Positions 14,984 to 35,904 of a stretch of DNA of 64,000 bases are shown here, one piece after another. Source of the DNA: Acidobacteriaceae bacterium (GTDB taxonomy: Bacteria > Acidobacteriota > Terriglobia > Terriglobales > Acidobacteriaceae); the NCBI GenBank assembly GCA_003131315.1, contig PKUV01000038.1:1-64000 (forward strand). Direction: 5' to 3'. Position 1 is the stretch's first letter. Each line of letters opens with the position of its first letter. The notes beneath the pieces were generated by a model. That model did not search any database and was not told the origin of the DNA. It saw only the letters and a list, made by a program, of their open reading frames with translations. The position numbers and the translations under genes are program-made.

Positions 14984-15138
14984 GTGCGTGAGAACTGGGC
15001 CGTCCCTCCGGGACTTGAATCATTTCTTTCATTTTTCCCCAGCGCTGAAGCGCTGGGCTAAGCTGGTTCGCCCCTACCGGGGCTGGATTTTCCTGTGTTT
15101 CATTCCACCGAGTTGCCCGAAAACGAGTTCTCACGCAC
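14984..15138. repeat. 155-bp TIR element, copy A
   Basis: Perfect 13-bp terminal inverted repeats GTGCGTGAGAACT (14984-14996) and AGTTCTCACGCAC (15126-15138). Inside are three palindromes: GTCCCTCCGGGAC, CCCAGCGCTGAAGCGCTGGG (15038-15057) and GCCCCTACCGGGGC. Other copies lie at 21979-22131, about 30585-30700 and about 34905-35048. There is no coding sequence. The element fills most of the gap between the DUF971 and PilZ genes. Confidence 0.85.
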
Positions 15139-15925: not shown

Positions 15926-18163
15926 CTACTCACCCGGAGGCTTCTGCTGTTCCTGCTGCCGCTTTTTCTCCTCGGGTGTTTGCGGCTTCTGCTGCTGGCG
16001 CTGGGGCGCCGGTTTCGTCTCCGCAGGGGGCGTGCGTGGTTGCGCGCTCGGCTGAGGAGTTTGCGGTCGCGGAGCGGGTTGATTCCGGCTCGGCTCGGGT
16101 CGATTGTTCGGCGCCGGCTGATTCGGCTGCGCTGAAGGTGGGCGATTGTTCCGCACCGGCGGCTCAGTTGGACGGTTCGGCTCGGGTCGATTGCTCGGCT
16201 GTGTCGGCGTCGGCCGATTCGGTTGAGCGGGATTGGTCGCGCCCGGACGCTCGTTCGGAGCAGGCTGGTTGCTCGGGCGGTTCGCCGGCGGCGCATTGGC
16301 GGGTTGGCTTGGTCTGGCAGCATTCGGTTGATTCGCAGGCGGCGTATTGGCGGGTTGGCTTGGCCTGGCAGTATTCGGCTGATTGGCAGGCGGCGCACTA
16401 CCGGGTCGATCCGGTCTGGCAGTATTCGGTTGGTTCGCGGGCGGCGTATTGGCGGGTTGGCTTGGTCTGGCAGCATTCGGCTGATTGGCAGGCGGCGCAC
16501 TACCGGGTCGATCCGGTCTCGCAGCACCCGGTTGGTTCCCAGGTTGGTTCGGCTGGTTCCCCGGACGGCCCGTGTTCGGTGTCGCCGGTTTTCCTGGAGG
16601 CGCCTGCCTCACCATCGGTTGCGTCGCAGTCACATTGGCCGGACGCAAGCTTCGCACTTCGCTCCTCGCCAACGGTTGGCCGGGATGCGCTGCTAGAGCT
16701 TGCTGCTGTTTTGCAAACGGTACCGGCGGAGGTGGTGGCGTCGTCTTCGCGATCACCTGCCGGTTCATCACTGCCGCCGGCGGAGCGGTCACATGATTGG
16801 CGGTCGCAGCCTTCGCTCCAAGTACGCTCTCCCGTGTGGGGGCGACCGCTACCCTCGCATTCACAGACGCAGCGGCGATCTGCTGCGCGTTCACGGCAAC
16901 CGCTGCTCGGCCCACGGGCTGCGCACTCGCGAAGGCGCGTTGCGGAACCGCCGTCACCGCACCCTGTACATTCCTGTTCGCGTAAGTCACATTCGTGATG
17001 TTCGTGGTTTTGTTGATGATGGTGGTGTTGTACACGTTCGTGATCTGGGTGTTATTGACGGTCGTATTGCTGATGTTCACCCGGTTCACGTACTCCCGGC
17101 TGACGTGGTACGACGGCACATAAACTTCCCGCGGACCCAGCGGAAACCATCCCACATTGCCGCCGAAGCCAACTCCTCCACCGCCAATAAAGACCACCAG
17201 CGCGGGCGCATATACCGCCCGCACCGCGACAGGCCCGGCCACCCAACCCCAGCGTCCGCCGACCGTCACCCAGCGTCCGTAGTGGAATGGCGCGTAGCCC
17301 CACGAAGCGTCATCGACCCACGTATATCCCCAAGGGGCAATCCAGTCCCAATGGCCATCGTGATAAGGCGCCCAACCTGCGGCAACCTGGTTGGGGAACC
17401 AGACGTGGCCATAGTTCGAATCGTCGCGCCAGTCGCCTTTGTCATCCAGATCCTCATAGCCGACAACATCGTGGGACAAATACTGCGCCGAGCGCGAGTT
17501 GTCGTAACGGCGATCGCGGTTGTACGCCCAGTTATCAAATTGGTCGGGTCCGCCGATGTCAATTACCTCGGCGTTCAGCGAGTCCGTCCCGCTGAAAGTG
17601 CCTCTTTGTCCGGCGTGCAGCGTATAGGTCTGGCCGTTGCCGGTCGACTCGCCTCCGCCCTCGCGTATGCTGACGACCGAGTAGGTGCCGTCTTCACTAG
17701 CCTCTAAACGATAGCTTCCCGGCTGGGAAACCGAAAACGCCAGGTTGGGGGTATCGATCTCGAAGACATCGTTCTGGTCCAGCCGGCGCACACGAATGTT
17801 AAGCGCGCCTGAGGTCAACTGAATCTGCACCGTGCGGTCGTCCAGGTTTAGAAAAGAGAAGCCGGTATTGGCCGCCAGGCGAATCACGGCCGATCCCAGT
17901 TGCAGCTCGGCGCGCGAGTCCTTGTCCGCCCAGAGCTTATCTCCGGTCGTCATGGGCCGGTTGGCAACCGCCTGCACCCACTCCGATTCACCGGCCGGCT
18001 GGAATGAAACCGAACCCTCCATGTAGCCGAGTCGAGCCACCCGGCTCGGCGGATCGTCTTGTTGATCCTGAGCGGCTGCTTGTTGCGGTAGGGCCACAGT
18101 CGTGAGCGCAACCAGCAGCACCGCGCTCAACCAGCCCAGCTTCTTGTTCAGTGTCATATTCAT
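15926..18163 (-). CDS. Secreted FecR-domain protein with repetitive Pro/Asn-rich tail
   Basis: A 745-residue exported protein: signal peptide (about 1-31), a FecR-like beta domain (about 45-200, with GSVSFQPAG and AELQLGSAVIRLA), then a Trp/Tyr/Gly-rich segment (about 230-345: HVWFPNQVAAGWAPYHDGHW, WGYTWVDDASWGYAPFHYGR) seen in DUF6600-type proteins. An Asn/Thr/Ile-rich stretch follows, and after about 480 a low-complexity tail rich in Pro, Asn, Gln and Arg. The tail has a 17-residue repeat (ARPSQPANTPPANQPNT and ARPDRPGSAPPANQPNA) arranged as a 34-residue double unit. No sigma or anti-sigma gene is adjacent, so the FecR part is probably structural or surface-related. It is divergent from fabZ. 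Confidence 0.85.
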   Translation of the reverse strand: MNMTLNKKLGWLSAVLLVALTTVALPQQAAAQDQQDDPPSRVARLGYMEGSVSFQPAGESEWVQAVANRPMTTGDKLWADKDSRAELQLGSAVIRLAANTGFSFLNLDDRTVQIQLTSGALNIRVRRLDQNDVFEIDTPNLAFSVSQPGSYRLEASEDGTYSVVSIREGGGESTGNGQTYTLHAGQRGTFSGTDSLNAEVIDIGGPDQFDNWAYNRDRRYDNSRSAQYLSHDVVGYEDLDDKGDWRDDSNYGHVWFPNQVAAGWAPYHDGHWDWIAPWGYTWVDDASWGYAPFHYGRWVTVGGRWGWVAGPVAVRAVYAPALVVFIGGGGVGFGGNVGWFPLGPREVYVPSYHVSREYVNRVNISNTTVNNTQITNVYNTTIINKTTNITNVTYANRNVQGAVTAVPQRAFASAQPVGRAAVAVNAQQIAAASVNARVAVAPTRESVLGAKAATANHVTAPPAAVMNRQVIAKTTPPPPPVPFAKQQQALAAHPGQPLARSEVRSLRPANVTATQPMVRQAPPGKPATPNTGRPGNQPNQPGNQPGAARPDRPGSAPPANQPNAARPSQPANTPPANQPNTARPDRPGSAPPANQPNTARPSQPANTPPANQPNAARPSQPANAPPANRPSNQPAPNERPGATNPAQPNRPTPTQPSNRPEPNRPTEPPVRNNRPPSAQPNQPAPNNRPEPSRNQPAPRPQTPQPSAQPRTPPAETKPAPQRQQQKPQTPEEKKRQQEQQKPPGE

Positions 18164-19246: not shown

Positions 19247-19326
19247 GAATTTGTAATTTCAAATTTGTAATTTGTGATTACAGCTCGCCAACCCAAATTA
19301 CAAATTACAAATTACCAGATTACAAA
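19247..19326. repeat. Inverted heptamer arrays between fabZ and lpxA
   Basis: Units of the type TGTAATT run through 19247-19281. After a 12-base spacer, AAATTAC units run through 19293-19326 as the inverted form, up to and including the lpxA start codon. The whole can fold into a long AT-rich hairpin inside the transcript. Confidence 0.85.
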
Positions 19327-21978: not shown

Positions 21979-22131
21979 GTGCGTAAGAGTGGGTCGTCTC
22001 TCCGGGACTTCACTGATGTTTTCTATCCTACCCCGCGCTGAAGCGCGGGGCTAAGCTGGCTCGCCCCTACCGGGGCTGGGTTCTCCAGCGTTTCGTCCCA
22101 CCGGGTTGCCCGAAGACGAGTTCTCACGCAC
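21979..22131. repeat. 153-bp TIR element, copy B
   Basis: The left end GTGCGTAAGAGT is a degenerate form of GTGCGTGAGAACT, and the right end AGTTCTCACGCAC (22119-22131) is perfect. The inner palindromes are the same three as in copy A, with a compensatory change: CCGCGCTGAAGCGCGG replaces CAGCGCTGAAGCGCTG, so both arms changed together. Confidence 0.85.
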
Positions 22132-22282: not shown

Positions 22283-23320
22283 CTGAGCCAGGAATTTCCG
22301 ATCAATGTTGCGGTCATTGGCGTGGGCGCCTTCGGGCGCAATCACGCGCGCGTCTATCAGCAACTGCAGCAGGCGGGCAGCGTGCGGCTGGTGGGGGTGG
22401 TCGATCCGGATACGGCGCGTGCCGACGCGATTGCGCGCGAGTTCGGCTGCAAATCGTTCGGGTCGGTCGAGCAGATGCTGACGACGCACAGCGAGGTGCA
22501 GGCGGCGTCGGTCGCGGTGCCGACCGTTCTCCATCGGGAGGTGGCGCGCGCGCTGATGGAAGCTGGGGTTGACGTGCTGATCGAAAAGCCGGTGGCCGCG
22601 ACGCTCGGCGAGGCCGACGAACTGCTTCGCGTGGCGCTGGAGCACAAGCGGGTGGCGCAGGTGGGGCATCTGGAGCGCTTCAATCCGGCGGTGCGGGCTA
22701 CGTTGCCGCTGATCAACCGGCCGATGTTTTTTGAAGTGCACCGGCTGAGCGTGTTCTCTCCGCGGGCGCTTGATGTGGACGTGGTGCTGGATCTGATGAT
22801 CCACGACCTCGACGTGGTGCTGACATTCGTGAAGTCGGAGGTGAAGGAAATCCGGGCGGTGGGGCTGCCGATTCTTTCGGGCAAGGTGGATATTGCGAAT
22901 GTGCGCATCGAGTTTGAATCGGGCTGCGTGGCAAACTTTACGGCCAGCCGGGTTTCGACGGAGCGCGTGCGCAAGCTGCGTTTCTTCCAGGCGGGGCAGT
23001 ATATTTCGGTCGATTATGCACGGCAGGATGTGCTGGTGTGCTCGGTCGGAAGTGCGGTCGGAGCCGCCCACTCATTCGCAACAGACGCGAATGAGTGGGG
23101 CACCCGGCCGAGCGTGAATCCGCAGATCCAGATGGCGAAGCCGCCGATCACGGCGGAGGAGCCGCTGCTGGCGGAGATCAAGGCATTCCTGCGGTCGGTG
23201 CGGGACCGGTCGCGTCCGGCGGTTTCGCTGGAGGATGGGCGGAAAGCGCTGGAGCTTGGGCTGGCGATTCTGGCGGAGATTGGGCGGCACGCGGGACGGA
23301 TCGCGGTGGGGAAAGGTTAG
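22283..23320 (+). CDS. Gfo/Idh/MocA-family oxidoreductase, probable CTG start
   Basis: An NAD(P)-dependent sugar-type dehydrogenase of about 345 residues. The Rossmann strand INVAVIGVGAFGRNHARVYQ and the EKPVAATLGEADEL segment (the EKP motif) identify it. The first ATG/GTG/TTG in frame is the GTG at 22322, which would delete the first beta strand; a stop codon lies at 22250. Between them only CTG (22283) fits, and it has GGAG 7 bases upstream. The gene follows the lipid A genes, as in related genomes, so a nucleotide-sugar role is likely but unproved. Its stop codon lies in a heptamer array. Confidence 0.8.
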   Translation: MSQEFPINVAVIGVGAFGRNHARVYQQLQQAGSVRLVGVVDPDTARADAIAREFGCKSFGSVEQMLTTHSEVQAASVAVPTVLHREVARALMEAGVDVLIEKPVAATLGEADELLRVALEHKRVAQVGHLERFNPAVRATLPLINRPMFFEVHRLSVFSPRALDVDVVLDLMIHDLDVVLTFVKSEVKEIRAVGLPILSGKVDIANVRIEFESGCVANFTASRVSTERVRKLRFFQAGQYISVDYARQDVLVCSVGSAVGAAHSFATDANEWGTRPSVNPQIQMAKPPITAEEPLLAEIKAFLRSVRDRSRPAVSLEDGRKALELGLAILAEIGRHAGRIAVGKG

Positions 23321-23456
23321 AGGTCAGAGCTCAGATTGCAGAGGTTTGTTCGCGCCACGGACAAAATTCTTTAGCGCAGAGGACACGGAGTTCACAGAAG
23401 ACCCGTAGGGCGGTTGGGTTCACCTCTGCAATCTGACCTCTGACCTCTGCAATTGC
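23315..23456. repeat. Inverted heptamer arrays GGTCAGA type
   Basis: The left array has the units GGTTAGA, GGTCAGA, GCTCAGA and TTGCAGA. After a spacer of about 75 bases the right array has ACCTCTG, CAATCTG, ACCTCTG, ACCTCTG, the inverse. Unit sequence and order match the pair around the four-helix-bundle gene at 25640, so these are two copies of one family with different spacers. Confidence 0.85.
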
Positions 23457-24908: not shown

Positions 24909-25517
24909 ATGAAGATTCAACGACTGCCGCTCTTAGTTCTGCCGTCCCTTGTTCTGGCGTGTCTGGTTCTACTCCGCCCGCCGGTTTTCGCGCAGGATGC
25001 GCCGGAGGCTCTCCGTCCGCCGAAGGGTGCGCAGGTTGCACTGGTCGTTTTCGAAGACCTGCAATGTCCCCAATGTAGTCGAACCGCGCCGCTGCTGGCT
25101 CAGGCCGGACGGACCTATAAAATTCCGGTTGTCCGCCACGATTTCCCGCTGCCGGCGCACAACTGGTCGTTCGACGCTGCCGTGCTGGCGCGCTACTTCG
25201 ACACGCATTCCAAGGAGACCGGGAACGCCTTCCGGGACTCTGTGTTCGAGCACCAACTGGAGATCAACCCGCAGAATTTGCGGGGCTTTGCGGAAAAGTT
25301 TGCCGCCGATCACAAGATTGGTTTGCCGTTCGTGGTGGATCCGACGGGCAAGCTGGCGGGGCTGGTGAGGGCGGACAAAGAGTTGGGCATGAGTCTGCAC
25401 CTCGAGCACACGCCGACCATCTGGGTGGTCAGCAACAAGCGTAACGGCAAGCCCTACGTGGAGGTGACGGACACTAACCAGCTCTATGTGTTGATCGACG
25501 CCATGAAGAAAGATTGA
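24909..25517 (+). CDS. Secreted DsbA-like thioredoxin-fold protein
   Basis: A 202-residue exported thioredoxin-fold protein. A signal peptide (LLVLPSLVLACLVLLRPPVF) is followed by the active site CPQC (Cys53, Cys56) in FEDLQCPQCSRTAP and a late cis-Pro region (EHTPTIWVV). It resembles DsbA/DsbG-type disulfide enzymes and the protein encoded at the window end. The ATG at 24909 was preferred to an in-frame GTG at 24891. Confidence 0.85.
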   Translation: MKIQRLPLLVLPSLVLACLVLLRPPVFAQDAPEALRPPKGAQVALVVFEDLQCPQCSRTAPLLAQAGRTYKIPVVRHDFPLPAHNWSFDAAVLARYFDTHSKETGNAFRDSVFEHQLEINPQNLRGFAEKFAADHKIGLPFVVDPTGKLAGLVRADKELGMSLHLEHTPTIWVVSNKRNGKPYVEVTDTNQLYVLIDAMKKD

Positions 25518-26028
25518 AGAGGTTAGAGGTCAGAGGTTAGAGGTCAGATTGCAGAGGTAAAAACCTCACATTCTCGATGTGAGGATCATCACGTTCAAGA
25601 TTGAAAATCAAAGAATAGAATCGCCTCACGAGGCGTGGCATGAAGCGGGACTCCGAGGCTCTGAAGATCCGCACCAAGGATTTTGCGTTGCGAGTCCTAA
25701 GGCTTTATCGCTCCCTGCCGCGAACTAAAGAAGCTCGAATCTTGGGTACCCAGCTGCTTCGCTCCAGCACATCGATCGGCGCAAACTACCGAGCGGCGTG
25801 CCGCGGAAGATCTCGGGCTGAATTCGTAGCCAAACTGGGAATCGTCTTGGAAGAGGCAGACGAGACAGTTTTCTGGCTAGAACTCTTTCAGGAAGGAAAT
25901 ATTTTTCCGGCGGACAAATTGCGCGATCTTGTCCAAGAGGCGAACGAATTAGTCTCAATTTTTGTCAGTTCCGTGCGGACCGCGAGAGGTTTACCTCTGC
26001 AATCCGACCTCTAACCTCTGACCTTCTT
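25512..26028. mobile_element. Heptamer-bounded element enclosing a four-helix-bundle gene
   Basis: The left boundary (25514-25559) has the units TTAGAGG, TCAGAGG, TTAGAGG, TCAGATT, GCAGAGG. The right boundary (25990-26028) is the same series inverted (ACCTCTG, CAATCCG, ACCTCTA, ACCTCTG). Inside come a perfect hairpin (CCTCACAT 25564-25571 with ATGTGAGG 25577-25584), a GCCTCACGAGGC hairpin just before the ATG, and the gene. The last codons and stop codon of the gene lie in the right array. The plan, an ORF for a four-helix-bundle protein inside a long inverted repeat, resembles rRNA intervening sequences. That it moves is inference. Confidence 0.6.
25640..26014 (+). CDS. Four-helix-bundle protein (S23/IVS family)
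   Basis: A 124-residue all-helical protein of the family known as four-helix-bundle or S23 proteins, first met in 23S rRNA intervening sequences and related in fold to the Avd accessory proteins of diversity-generating retroelements. Recognisable parts are LRTK-type DFALRVLRLYRSLP, QLLRSSTSIGANYRAACRG, RSRAEFVAKLGIVLEEADET and FWLELFQE. The reaction is unknown; the basic surface suggests nucleic-acid binding. The last eight residues (GLPLQSDL) come from the flanking heptamer array. It ends 20 bases from the convergent fabF. Confidence 0.88.
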   Translation: MKRDSEALKIRTKDFALRVLRLYRSLPRTKEARILGTQLLRSSTSIGANYRAACRGRSRAEFVAKLGIVLEEADETVFWLELFQEGNIFPADKLRDLVQEANELVSIFVSSVRTARGLPLQSDL

Positions 26029-30584: not shown

Positions 30585-30700
30585 GTGTCGATGAGAACTC
30601 GGCCGTCCCTCCGGGACTTGACTCACTTCTTGCACTTTTCCCAGCGCTGAAGCGCTGGGCTAAGCTCGTTCGCCCCTCCGGGGCTGGGGACCCCGGTGCT
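30585..30700. repeat. TIR element copy C, right end lost
   Basis: The left end (GTGTCGATGAGAACT) is close to the family end. GTCCCTCCGGGAC, CCAGCGCTGAAGCGCTGG and GCCCCTCCGGGGC follow, then the sequence departs and the right terminal repeat is missing. It fills much of the 330-base gap between the divergent amidohydrolase operon and the next gene. Confidence 0.75.
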
Positions 30701-34847: not shown

Positions 34848-35048
34848 GATTGCGAAAAAGCTCGGGTTTCGTACCAGCGCATCGCTTCACCGATCCCGTA
34901 AGAAGCCTGGGTCGTCCCTCCGGGACTTGAATCATTTCTACCACTTTTCCCAGCGTTGAAGCGCTGGGCTAAGCTGGTTTGCCCCTCCGGGGCTGGATTC
35001 TCCCTTGCTTCATTCCACCGGGTCGCCCGAAAACGAGTTCTCACGCAC
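34848..35048. repeat. Chimeric repeat: CTTTAG-type piece fused to TIR element copy D
   Basis: The left part (to about 34904) reads GCGAAAAAGCTC, TTTCGTACCAGCGCATCGC, like the repeats at 51558 and 56244 but decayed. It then passes into the TIR element with GTCCCTCCGGGAC, CCCAGCGTTGAAGCGCTGGG and GCCCCTCCGGGGC and ends with a perfect AGTTCTCACGCAC (35036-35048). The left TIR was lost, apparently by insertion into or recombination with the other repeat. Confidence 0.75.
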
Positions 35049-35795: not shown

Positions 35796-35904
35796 GTAAT
35801 TTGTAATTGGTAATTTGTAATTGGTAATTTAAAAGCCAATCCGGGCCACCGAGGATTAGGATTGGTCTGCCAAATTACCAATTACAAATTACCAATTACA
35901 AATT
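35796..35904. repeat. Inverted heptamer arrays between rpe and bamD
   Basis: TTTGTAA/TTGGTAA units (35796-35830), a 41-base spacer, then AATTACA/AATTACC units (35872-35904). Close in unit sequence to the arrays at 45412 and 63315, but the spacer is different. Confidence 0.85.

What the first reader, a model, noticed from the sequence alone, without database searches (positions are those of the whole stretch)
25512..26028. Four-helix-bundle gene enclosed by inverted heptamer arrays, IVS-like mobile unit
Seen: left and right arrays with the same unit order inverted; two perfect hairpins before the ATG; the gene's last codons and stop lie in the right array. The same array pair occurs at 23315-23456 with only a 75-base non-coding spacer, so this copy has the gene as its cargo. 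Established: S23-type four-helix-bundle proteins sit in inverted-repeat-bounded 23S rRNA intervening sequences, and the similar Avd protein assists reverse transcription in diversity-generating retroelements. Inference: the protein may act on the array hairpins, making or spreading them.
Basis: partly seen in the sequence, partly recalled or inferred. Interest (0 to 1): 0.82.

Follow-up and report, generated by a model that had tools for sequence, protein, structure and literature searches.

The report
Bundle-protein genes inside heptamer palindromes
Genes for a small four-helix-bundle protein of unknown function sit, in many kinds of bacteria, inside mirror-image arrays of 7-letter repeats, and gene and repeat appear to form an undescribed dispersed, probably mobile element in which the protein's sequence tracks that of its repeat.

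Summary
At 25527-25561 and 25990-26024, 35-nt arms (97% complementary) built of 7-mers enclose a PF05635/TIGR02436 (S23-type) gene whose stop lies in the right arm; 23319-23345/23422-23448 is a gene-less copy. It is a rule, not a local oddity. All five S23 genes of this genome with both flanks visible lie between inverted 7-8-mer arrays, each with its own unit. The flank test is passed by 52 of 55 loci of the bacterial family, 67 of 79 from many phyla, 38 of 40 of the window's subtype. Periodic inverted arms: 79 of 134 S23 loci, but 0 of 25 small GIY-YIG, 0 of 30 ParE, 0 of 20 RAYT loci. Unit and protein co-vary at unrelated sites (0 of 999 permutations); 16 of 18 gene-less palindromes match an S23 arm. 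Congeners show occupied, gene-less, decayed, differently occupied and empty sites. The protein is under purifying selection. Best reading: a RAYT/REPIN-like partnership with a non-transposase protein. That S23 acts on the arrays is inferred; enzyme and intermediate are unknown. It is not an rRNA IVS.

The parts
25518..25561 (+). left heptamer array (AGAGGTT/AGAGGTC); inverted-repeat arm 25527-25561
25564..25584 (+). internal perfect hairpin 1 (8-bp stem, 5-nt loop); recurs in orthologous copies L060 and, one pair shorter, L064
   Evidence: read by eye
25622..25635 (+). internal hairpin 2 (6 bp, 2-nt loop) just before the ATG; not kept intact in L060 or L064
   Evidence: read by eye
25640..26014 (+). 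S23-type four-helix-bundle gene (PF05635 E 3.2e-17; TIGR02436 E 8.2e-26); stop codon inside the right arm
   Evidence: solved relative 2RLD
25990..26024 (+). right inverted array (arm)
23319..23448 (.). gene-less palindrome of the same AGAGGTC/GATTGCAGAGGT family: arms 23319-23345 and 23422-23448, 76-nt spacer; orthologous site empty in G078, shorter palindrome in G075 (by eye)
   Evidence: DNA fold z -5.45
19253..19315 (.). gene-less AATTTGT palindrome, also present in G078 and G075 (by eye); best S23 arm L467 at 14.5, below the 15 cut
35798..35904 (.). gene-less GGTAATTTGTAATT palindrome, 33-nt perfect arms; other palindrome sequence in G078 at the same spot; S23-bearing counterpart L468
44269..44359 (.). 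gene-less TTCGCTATTCGTCG palindrome; S23-bearing counterpart L003 in the same genome
45408..45482 (.). gene-less ATTGGTAATTTGT palindrome; S23-bearing counterpart L468
49331..49405 (.). gene-less 8-mer ATCGGGTC palindrome; S23-bearing counterpart L442
63311..63406 (.). gene-less AATTTGTAATTGGC palindrome; not seen at the orthologous site in G080 (by eye); S23-bearing counterpart L465
6111..6153 (.). unpaired heptamer array CTGAGAA (= AGTTCTC), not seen at the orthologous site in G075 (by eye)

Best explanation
The gene and its two arms form one element. It belongs to a class of dispersed palindromes whose arms are tandem 7-mers (sometimes 8- or 9-mers), and S23-type four-helix-bundle genes are protein-coding members of that class in many bacterial phyla. 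SHOWN: the association and its specificity against three other gene families, co-variation of protein and unit, matching gene-less copies, presence/absence at orthologous sites, purifying selection on the protein; shown by eye and by a score test at most but not all sites: both arms of a copy change together. INFERRED: the S23 protein (its relative 2GSC is published as an assembly of five four-helix bundles) recognises its own unit as folded single-stranded DNA or RNA and brings in a host or trans-acting copying/integrating enzyme, so that the palindrome is copied into, or over, other intergenic sites, often directly at stop codons. Gene-less palindromes are non-autonomous derivatives used in trans, as REPINs are thought to be by RAYTs. 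One arm is probably rewritten from the other while the hairpin is copied.
For: Flank inverted-repeat test against non-homologous left/right pairings, above the 95% null: 52 of 55 family loci, 20 of 21 Acidobacteria and 47 of 58 loci from other phyla, 38 of 40 window-subtype loci. The family threshold (12.5) is passed by 41 of 901 random positions and by one of 30 ParE loci. Score 15 or more with period 7-9: 32 of 55 and 47 of 79 S23 loci, against 0 of 25 GIY-YIG, 0 of 30 ParE, 0 of 20 RAYT. Protein identity vs arm similarity at non-homologous flanks: rho 0.11 (mostly classical set, 102 loci) and 0.26 (window type, 40 loci), 0 of 999 permutations each; 68% of 34 window-type pairs at 70-80% identity share the unit, against 0-7% in the lower bins; reverse-complement control -0.02 in both. 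16 of 18 gene-less palindromes match an S23 arm at 15 or more, against 3 (reversed arms) and 2 (reverse complement). 52 matches of one unit, up to 1 mismatch, in G000; backwards control 0. Orthologous sites: S23-bearing, inverted, decayed, gene-less, other unit, empty; 34 genus loci at 16 sites. dN/dS 0.04-0.25 in the 20 estimable of 36 compared pairs. Opposite arms more alike within a locus than between orthologues in 28 of 35 pairs. Array index vs S23 copy number in 60 genomes: rho 0.61; partial 0.38, p 0.004.
Against: No catalytic domain is known in S23 (recalled) and no mobility enzyme was identified. Six of 15 genomes without a detected S23 still have arrays (G026: 33 hits) and six of 45 with S23 have none by the same index. 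RAYT copy number correlates with S23 copy number (rho 0.76) and with arrays (0.54; partial 0.21, p 0.13); RAYT flanks are other palindromes, but one of 20 RAYT genes (L342) has 7-mer tandem arrays on both sides too. Outside the window no S23 gene lay in any of the other 18 periodic pairs of 1.18 Mb. One AGAGGTC pair encloses a TonB-C gene instead. 28 of 109 arms are not periodic at the threshold used. In the arm test, 4 of 35 pairs go the other way and two of six sites show almost no difference; an earlier version with 35 of 40 picked arm segments by their within-locus match and is biased. No target-site duplication was established. Host relatedness was controlled only by dropping pairs with homologous flanks. 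The unit/protein link could be plain co-inheritance of a unit that moves whole, without specific binding.
Confidence: 0.6

Rival explanations
1. Landing-site model: the palindromes are made by something else (replication slippage plus fold-back repair, or a RAYT-like enzyme), and S23 genes are selfish or passenger genes that insert into or persist in them.
For: Gene-less palindromes outnumber S23-bearing ones; a TonB-C gene also sits in one pair; RAYT and S23 copy numbers co-vary; some genomes without detected S23 have arrays.
Against: Does not predict that protein sequence tracks unit sequence at unrelated sites, nor that 16 of 18 gene-less palindromes have an S23-bearing counterpart, nor that three other gene families never have such arms (0 of 75 loci).
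Confidence: 0.17
2. RNA-level model: the arms form a long dsRNA stem around the S23 message (as in 23S rRNA IVSs), and S23 binds it for autoregulation or processing; mobility is incidental.
For: IVS architecture with an S23 ORF between terminal inverted repeats is published (PMC4990558, passages); the S23 stop codon lies in the right arm in 34 of 102 loci.
Against: Mismatches between the arms are not skewed to G.U in the gene sense (121 G.U vs 135 A.C); the cargo is inverted relative to its flanks at three sites; gene-less copies are common; no rRNA in the loci searched.
Confidence: 0.12
3. The palindromes are transcription terminators or mRNA stabilisers that evolve fast; S23 lies between them because it is a small intergenic gene.
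For: Many lie directly after stop codons or between convergent genes (by eye), and the three tested fold strongly as DNA.
Against: ParE, GIY-YIG and RAYT genes in the same genomes lack such arms; one unit has 52 matches in one genome and the unit at one site changes wholesale between species, which a terminator need not do.
Confidence: 0.07
4. Chance: arrays are so common that S23 genes fall between them by accident.
For: The window is array-rich (7 gene-less palindromes in 64 kb).
Against: Score above 12.5: 52 of 55 S23 loci against 41 of 901 random positions; score 15 or more: 45 of 55 against 9 of 901 (2.0% of 448) and 1 of 30 ParE loci. Other S23-bearing genomes had only 7 periodic palindromes in 400 kb.
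Confidence: 0.01

Closest known systems
REPIN / RAYT systems (PMC3116915, passages; PMC2817692 and PMC3733652, listing and start of abstract only)
   Same: Dispersed intergenic palindromes in many copies, plus a gene family flanked by the same palindrome, with co-evolution of the two; most copies carry no gene.
   Different: Partner protein is an S23 four-helix bundle, not a Y1 transposase; arms are tandem 7-mers of many different units. In the same genomes the 20 sampled RAYT genes lie between other, GC-rich palindromes (an AGCCC hairpin in 17 by eye) and none has periodic arms.
23S rRNA intervening sequences with an S23 ORF (PMC4990558, passages)
   Same: Same protein family (PF05635), one ORF between terminal inverted repeats of similar length (28-bp stem in the published case); a mobile or transposition origin is discussed there.
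   Different: Intergenic: no rRNA match in Rfam in 100 S23 loci or the window. Heptamer arms; many gene-less copies; protein under purifying selection.
Inverted GGGAATC heptamer repeats of Xanthomonas (PMC4692102, passages)
   Same: Intergenic heptamer arrays, 70 and 75 inverted pairs in two species, mostly at the same places with variable length and sequence.
   Different: The paper generally found no association with mobile elements, and 'four helix' has 0 hits in its main text. Whether XCC0516, the S23 protein of PDB 2GSC, lies between such repeats was not testable here.
Avd of diversity-generating retroelements (PMC10053308, passages)
   Same: PF05635 resembles Avd according to that paper; the S23 protein of L021 has a weak bAvd hit (4.7e-4, below that model's cut-off).
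   Different: The genome has one RVT_1 match, on a contig with no S23 gene; RT copy number does not clearly track arrays (rho 0.24, p 0.06).
TAACTGA repeats of Beggiatoaceae (PMC4679880, abstract and passages)
   Same: Intergenic heptamer arrays; [quoted passage not shown]
   Different: Direct repeats with one exception; 'four helix' has 0 hits in the main text.

Membership tests
23S rRNA intervening sequence (IVS) | Lies inside a 23S rRNA gene | tested here: not met
   No rRNA match at Rfam gathering scores in 100 S23 loci (L002-L021, L217-L296) or in the window; 35 further family loci were checked only for nine typed 23S motifs, without a positive control. The window copy lies between a thioredoxin-fold gene and a convergent ketoacyl-synthase gene.
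23S rRNA intervening sequence (IVS) | S23 ORF between terminal inverted repeats | tested here: met
23S rRNA intervening sequence (IVS) | Excised from RNA by RNase III | not testable with these tools
   No RNA data; the G.U test was neutral.
REPIN/RAYT | Associated gene is a Y1 tyrosine transposase | tested here: not met
   The gene is PF05635. Sampled Y1 genes of the same genomes carry other palindromes.
REPIN/RAYT | Many dispersed gene-less palindromes sharing the sequence that flanks the gene | tested here: met
   52 unit matches in G000, palindromes read by eye; 16 of 18 gene-less palindromes match an S23 arm.
Diversity-generating retroelement | Reverse transcriptase next to the Avd-like gene | tested here: not met
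   One RVT_1 match in the whole genome, on contig C121; the six S23 genes are on C44, C62, C6, C147, C17, C98. Template/variable repeat pairs were not searched for.
IS / MITE with fixed terminal repeats | Constant terminal inverted repeats and target-site duplication | tested here: inconclusive
   Arms differ from locus to locus; no duplication recognised by eye at the empty site in G078, not tested systematically.
S23 / four helix bundle protein (PF05635, TIGR02436) | Profile match above the curated cut-off | tested here: met
   63.1 bits vs 33.8; 90.4 vs 24

The most novel reading that the evidence does not exclude
S23 proteins are sequence-specific makers of palindromes: each S23 lineage writes, spreads and overwrites hairpins of its own heptamer across its host genome, a bacteria-wide class of mobile element that has no transposase of its own and whose terminal sequence is free to change because the partner protein changes with it. 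The replacement of one palindrome family by another at the same spot in congeners would then be retrohoming-like rewriting of pre-existing hairpins, tying S23 functionally to its relative Avd.
Probability: 0.33. Interest if true: 0.95.

Novelty: categorically new. Interest (0 to 1): 0.87.

Why it matters
S23/four-helix-bundle genes outside rRNA have no known role that I can recall, and 7-mer repeats of bacterial genomes have been described lineage by lineage without a cause (PMC4692102, PMC4679880). If the two belong together, one unknown explains the other: a widespread palindromic element class with its own protein, a source of many intergenic hairpins, and a directly testable system (one small protein, one short repeat).

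Tried and rejected
The first null had a false high tail, probably from orthologous flanks; pairs with homologous flanks were excluded afterwards. The 'pattern read backwards' control is not neutral, since TGA-phased heptamer arrays match it; forward, reverse and control counts were therefore summed, a choice made after seeing them. Without the control counts 35 of 45 S23+ and 4 of 15 S23- genomes have a match (counted).

GIY-YIG as an alternative cargo of the same arrays was suggested by L060 and rejected as a rule: of 18 GIY-YIG loci with arm score 15 or more none is periodic, and 15 are by eye TGTCATCC...GAAGGA-type repeats. RAYT as the carrier was rejected on flanks but not as a helper. An RNA-stem signature was sought and not found. 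A defence role: no PADLOC match for three S23 proteins. The arm test (35 of 40) was replaced by an unbiased one (28 of 35).

Rows dropped: L001 (contig edge) from all flank tests; 5 of 30 GIY-YIG loci (three UvrC-sized, two about 400-aa frames); L223; of 135 loci with flank data, 26 with arm score below 15 (low score, short, or with stops); two of 42 window-type loci below 15; the contig-edge or partial matches of both sites; the pairs with inverted cargo. dN/dS: 4 of the 40 pairs involve the decayed L003 and were not computed, and 16 of the other 36 had saturated dS.

Full report
WHAT IS THERE. The window (G000:C17:1-64000, a 6.0-Mb assembly in 194 contigs) has at 25640-26014 a gene of 124 codons matching PF05635 (3.2e-17) and TIGR02436 'four helix bundle protein' (8.2e-26). 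It lies between two 35-nt arms, 97% complementary, made of 7-mers (AGAGGTC/AGAGGTT) and ending inside with GATTGCAGAGGTAAA. Its stop codon is inside the right arm. A gene-less copy of the same palindrome, with a 76-nt spacer, is at 23319-23448. Six further gene-less 7- or 8-mer palindromes and some unpaired arrays lie in the window. The host is probably an acidobacterium: contig C5 of same-family genome G001 and a record titled Candidatus Korobacter versatilis both have 268702 bases; that identification is inference; the lineage of the name is.

THE RULE WITHIN THE GENOME. The genome has six PF05635 genes. Five have both flanks and all five lie between inverted arrays, each with its own unit: GCTCACC, TTCGTCG (a decayed gene), TTAGCTC, AGAGGTC, and an 8-mer TCATTGAA. 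L002 has the weakest arms (13.5, above the 95% but not the 99% null). The sixth is at a contig edge with an array on the visible side (by eye).

THE RULE ACROSS BACTERIA. I scored the best inverted repeat between the 350 bases left and right of each gene, against a null of left flanks paired with right flanks of other loci without homology. S23 genes of the family: 52 of 55 above the 95% null (12.5), 39 above the 99% null. Of 901 random positions 41 exceed 12.5 and 9 reach 15. Eighty S23 loci from all of GTDB, the best of 585, 79 usable: 20 of 21 Acidobacteria and 47 of 58 from other phyla (Bacteroidota, Planctomycetota, Clostridia, Proteobacteria, Nitrospirae, Chloroflexi, Treponema and others by record title) above 95%, 20 and 34 above 99%. 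The window's own protein subtype: 38 of 40 above 95%, 21 above 99%. Genus: score 13 or more in 33 of 34. Of 109 loci with arm score 15 or more, the best period of the 5' arm is 7 in 75, 8 in 4, 9 in 2, none in 28; shuffled arms give 2 of 109 with any period.

SPECIFICITY. Score 15 or more and period 7-9: S23 32 of 55 and 47 of 79; small GIY-YIG 0 of 25; ParE 0 of 30; RAYT/Y1 0 of 20. 18 of 25 GIY-YIG and 20 of 20 RAYT loci do have inverted repeats at 15 or more (ParE 1 of 30), but of other kinds: by eye 15 of the 18 GIY-YIG pairs are TGTCATCC...GAAGGA-type and 17 of the 20 RAYT pairs hold an AGCCC hairpin. One RAYT locus, L342, has 7-mer tandem arrays in both flanks besides.

PROTEIN AND UNIT GO TOGETHER. 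Among 102 S23 loci (mostly classical type), protein identity and arm similarity correlate over 5073 pairs with non-homologous flanks (rho 0.11, 0 of 999 permutations; reverse-complement control -0.02). Pairs at 60-70% identity share the unit in 17.7% of 113, three of four above 70%, pairs below 55% in at most 2% per bin. Among 40 window-type loci rho is 0.26 (0 of 999; control -0.02), and of 34 pairs at 70-80% identity 68% share the unit, against 0-7% in all lower bins. Between the two protein types 0.1% of pairs share a unit. Host relatedness was controlled only by dropping pairs with 60 or more aligned bases of flank. Either S23 recognises its unit, or gene and arms travel together; both make them one element.

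GENE-LESS COPIES. GTYAGATTGCAGAGGT has 52 hits (arms, not palindromes; up to one mismatch) in G000, none backwards; the loci read by eye are mostly hairpins with short spacers. In 1.18 Mb that includes the window and 20 stretches around its orthologues, 19 periodic pairs were found; the only one holding an S23 gene is the window's own. Of the 18 others, 16 match some S23 arm at score 15 or more (reversed arms 3, reverse complement 2), including six of the seven in the window.

MOVEMENT AND TURNOVER. The window's site in 22 congeners, read by eye: S23 in the same orientation between arms (G000, G067), in the opposite orientation among several arrays (G064, G063), fragments only (G062, G065), palindrome only (for example G076, G061, G066, G068), another palindrome (for example G080), a GIY-YIG gene next to the left arm (G075), and none (for example G079). 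The 23319 site is empty in G078. Two more sites, G000 C101:36118 and C83:34567, carry palindromes of different units in different species, mostly directly after the same stop codon: AGAGGTC, AGAAGTC, TAATTTGGTAATCGGG, ATTTGTG, TTAGCCT, ATTGAGTC, CAGTACC and others, or none (18 and 20 genomes printed). Thirty-four S23 genes of the genus occupy 16 sites, with the gene inverted relative to its flanks within two of the shared sites. Several copies are broken (10 of 135 loci have a stop inside the match). Opposite arms are more alike within a locus than between orthologues in 28 of 35 pairs (3 equal, 4 less; mean 20.6 vs 15.3), clearly at four of six sites: arms tend to change together. dN/dS of the protein is 0.04-0.25 in 20 estimable pairs (many dS above 1, so approximate): the protein is kept.

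GENOME-LEVEL LINK. A count of 7-phased AGT (and TGA) arrays in 60 genomes rises with S23 copy number (rho 0.61); 9 of 15 genomes without S23 have none, against 6 of 45 with it. S23 keeps a partial correlation of 0.38 (p 0.004) after RAYT, RT, ParE, GIY-YIG and genome size; RAYT does not (0.21, p 0.13). Phylogeny is not corrected for, and S23 copies contribute some of the arrays. In sampled stretches there were 0 periodic palindromes in 371 kb of nine S23-less and 7 in 400 kb of eleven S23-bearing genomes.

MECHANISM. Shown: association, specificity, co-variation, turnover, selection. Inferred: the protein is the partner that makes or spreads the palindrome. DNA or RNA level is open. Three palindromes of the window fold strongly as DNA, a control stretch does not. 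Mismatches give no RNA signature. 5' arms have more G than C in 80 loci and fewer in 23, a polarity without explanation. Both protein types have solved relatives deposited with five chains, 2GSC and 2RLD, and the title of 2GSC's paper speaks of five four-helix bundles (title seen in the reference list of PMC10053308). PF05635 resembles Avd (passages of PMC10053308; weak bAvd hit of L021's protein), which suggests but does not show a reverse-transcription route.

WHAT IS KNOWN. In ten searches of the held open library no listed title or abstract start links S23 genes to heptamer arrays; long lists were seen only in part, most papers were not opened, and most subscription journals are not held, so this is a limited negative. 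Inverted heptamers in Xanthomonas were described without a cause (PMC4692102, passages), TAACTGA repeats likewise (PMC4679880), the S23 IVS as a selfish element in 23S rRNA (PMC4990558, passages), and REPIN/RAYT is the nearest working analogue (PMC3116915, passages). Membership fails for IVS (no rRNA in 100 loci searched), REPIN/RAYT (no Y1) and DGR (no RT beside it). Hence 'categorically new' for the kind, with the reservation that it works most like REPIN/RAYT.

VERDICT. The association is as good as certain (about 0.97); that it is a dispersed, probably mobile element about 0.85; that S23 acts on the arrays about 0.6.

Noticed in passing
L087-L111; also L106, L114; L060:905-1435 (-): Small GIY-YIG genes in these genomes are often flanked by inverted TGTCATCC...GAAGGA-type repeats (18 of 25 with arm score 15 or more; 15 of these of that type by eye): a second gene/palindrome partnership. 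At C83:34567 such a repeat takes the place of the heptamer palindrome in G061.
   Followed up: partly
L151:1480-2230 (G000:C63:15470-16189): An AGAGGTC array pair encloses a TonB-C domain gene (PF03544, 3.7e-15) instead of S23: possible cargo capture.
   Followed up: partly
60 family genomes: RAYT (Y1_Tnp) and S23 copy numbers co-vary strongly (rho 0.76) although their palindromes differ.
   Followed up: partly
S23 arms, 109 loci: Palindrome polarity: the 5' arm has more G than C in 80 loci and fewer in 23; unexplained.
   Followed up: no
window 16281-16543: 51/102-bp tandem repeat array, not examined.
   Followed up: no
L315 (G078), orthologue of window 35798-35904: Composite: a left AGAGGTC arm next to a TTCGCTA palindrome, perhaps an intermediate in the replacement of one palindrome by another (by eye).
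   Followed up: no
G079 (genus): The one genus member of 24 with no S23 match shows, by eye, no heptamer palindrome at the ketoacyl-synthase site or at C83:34567.
   Followed up: no
window 15038-15084, 22031-22077, 30640-30685, 34949-34994: Four Acido-Lenti-1 RNA matches (RF01687) in 64 kb, another small dispersed element not examined.
   Followed up: no
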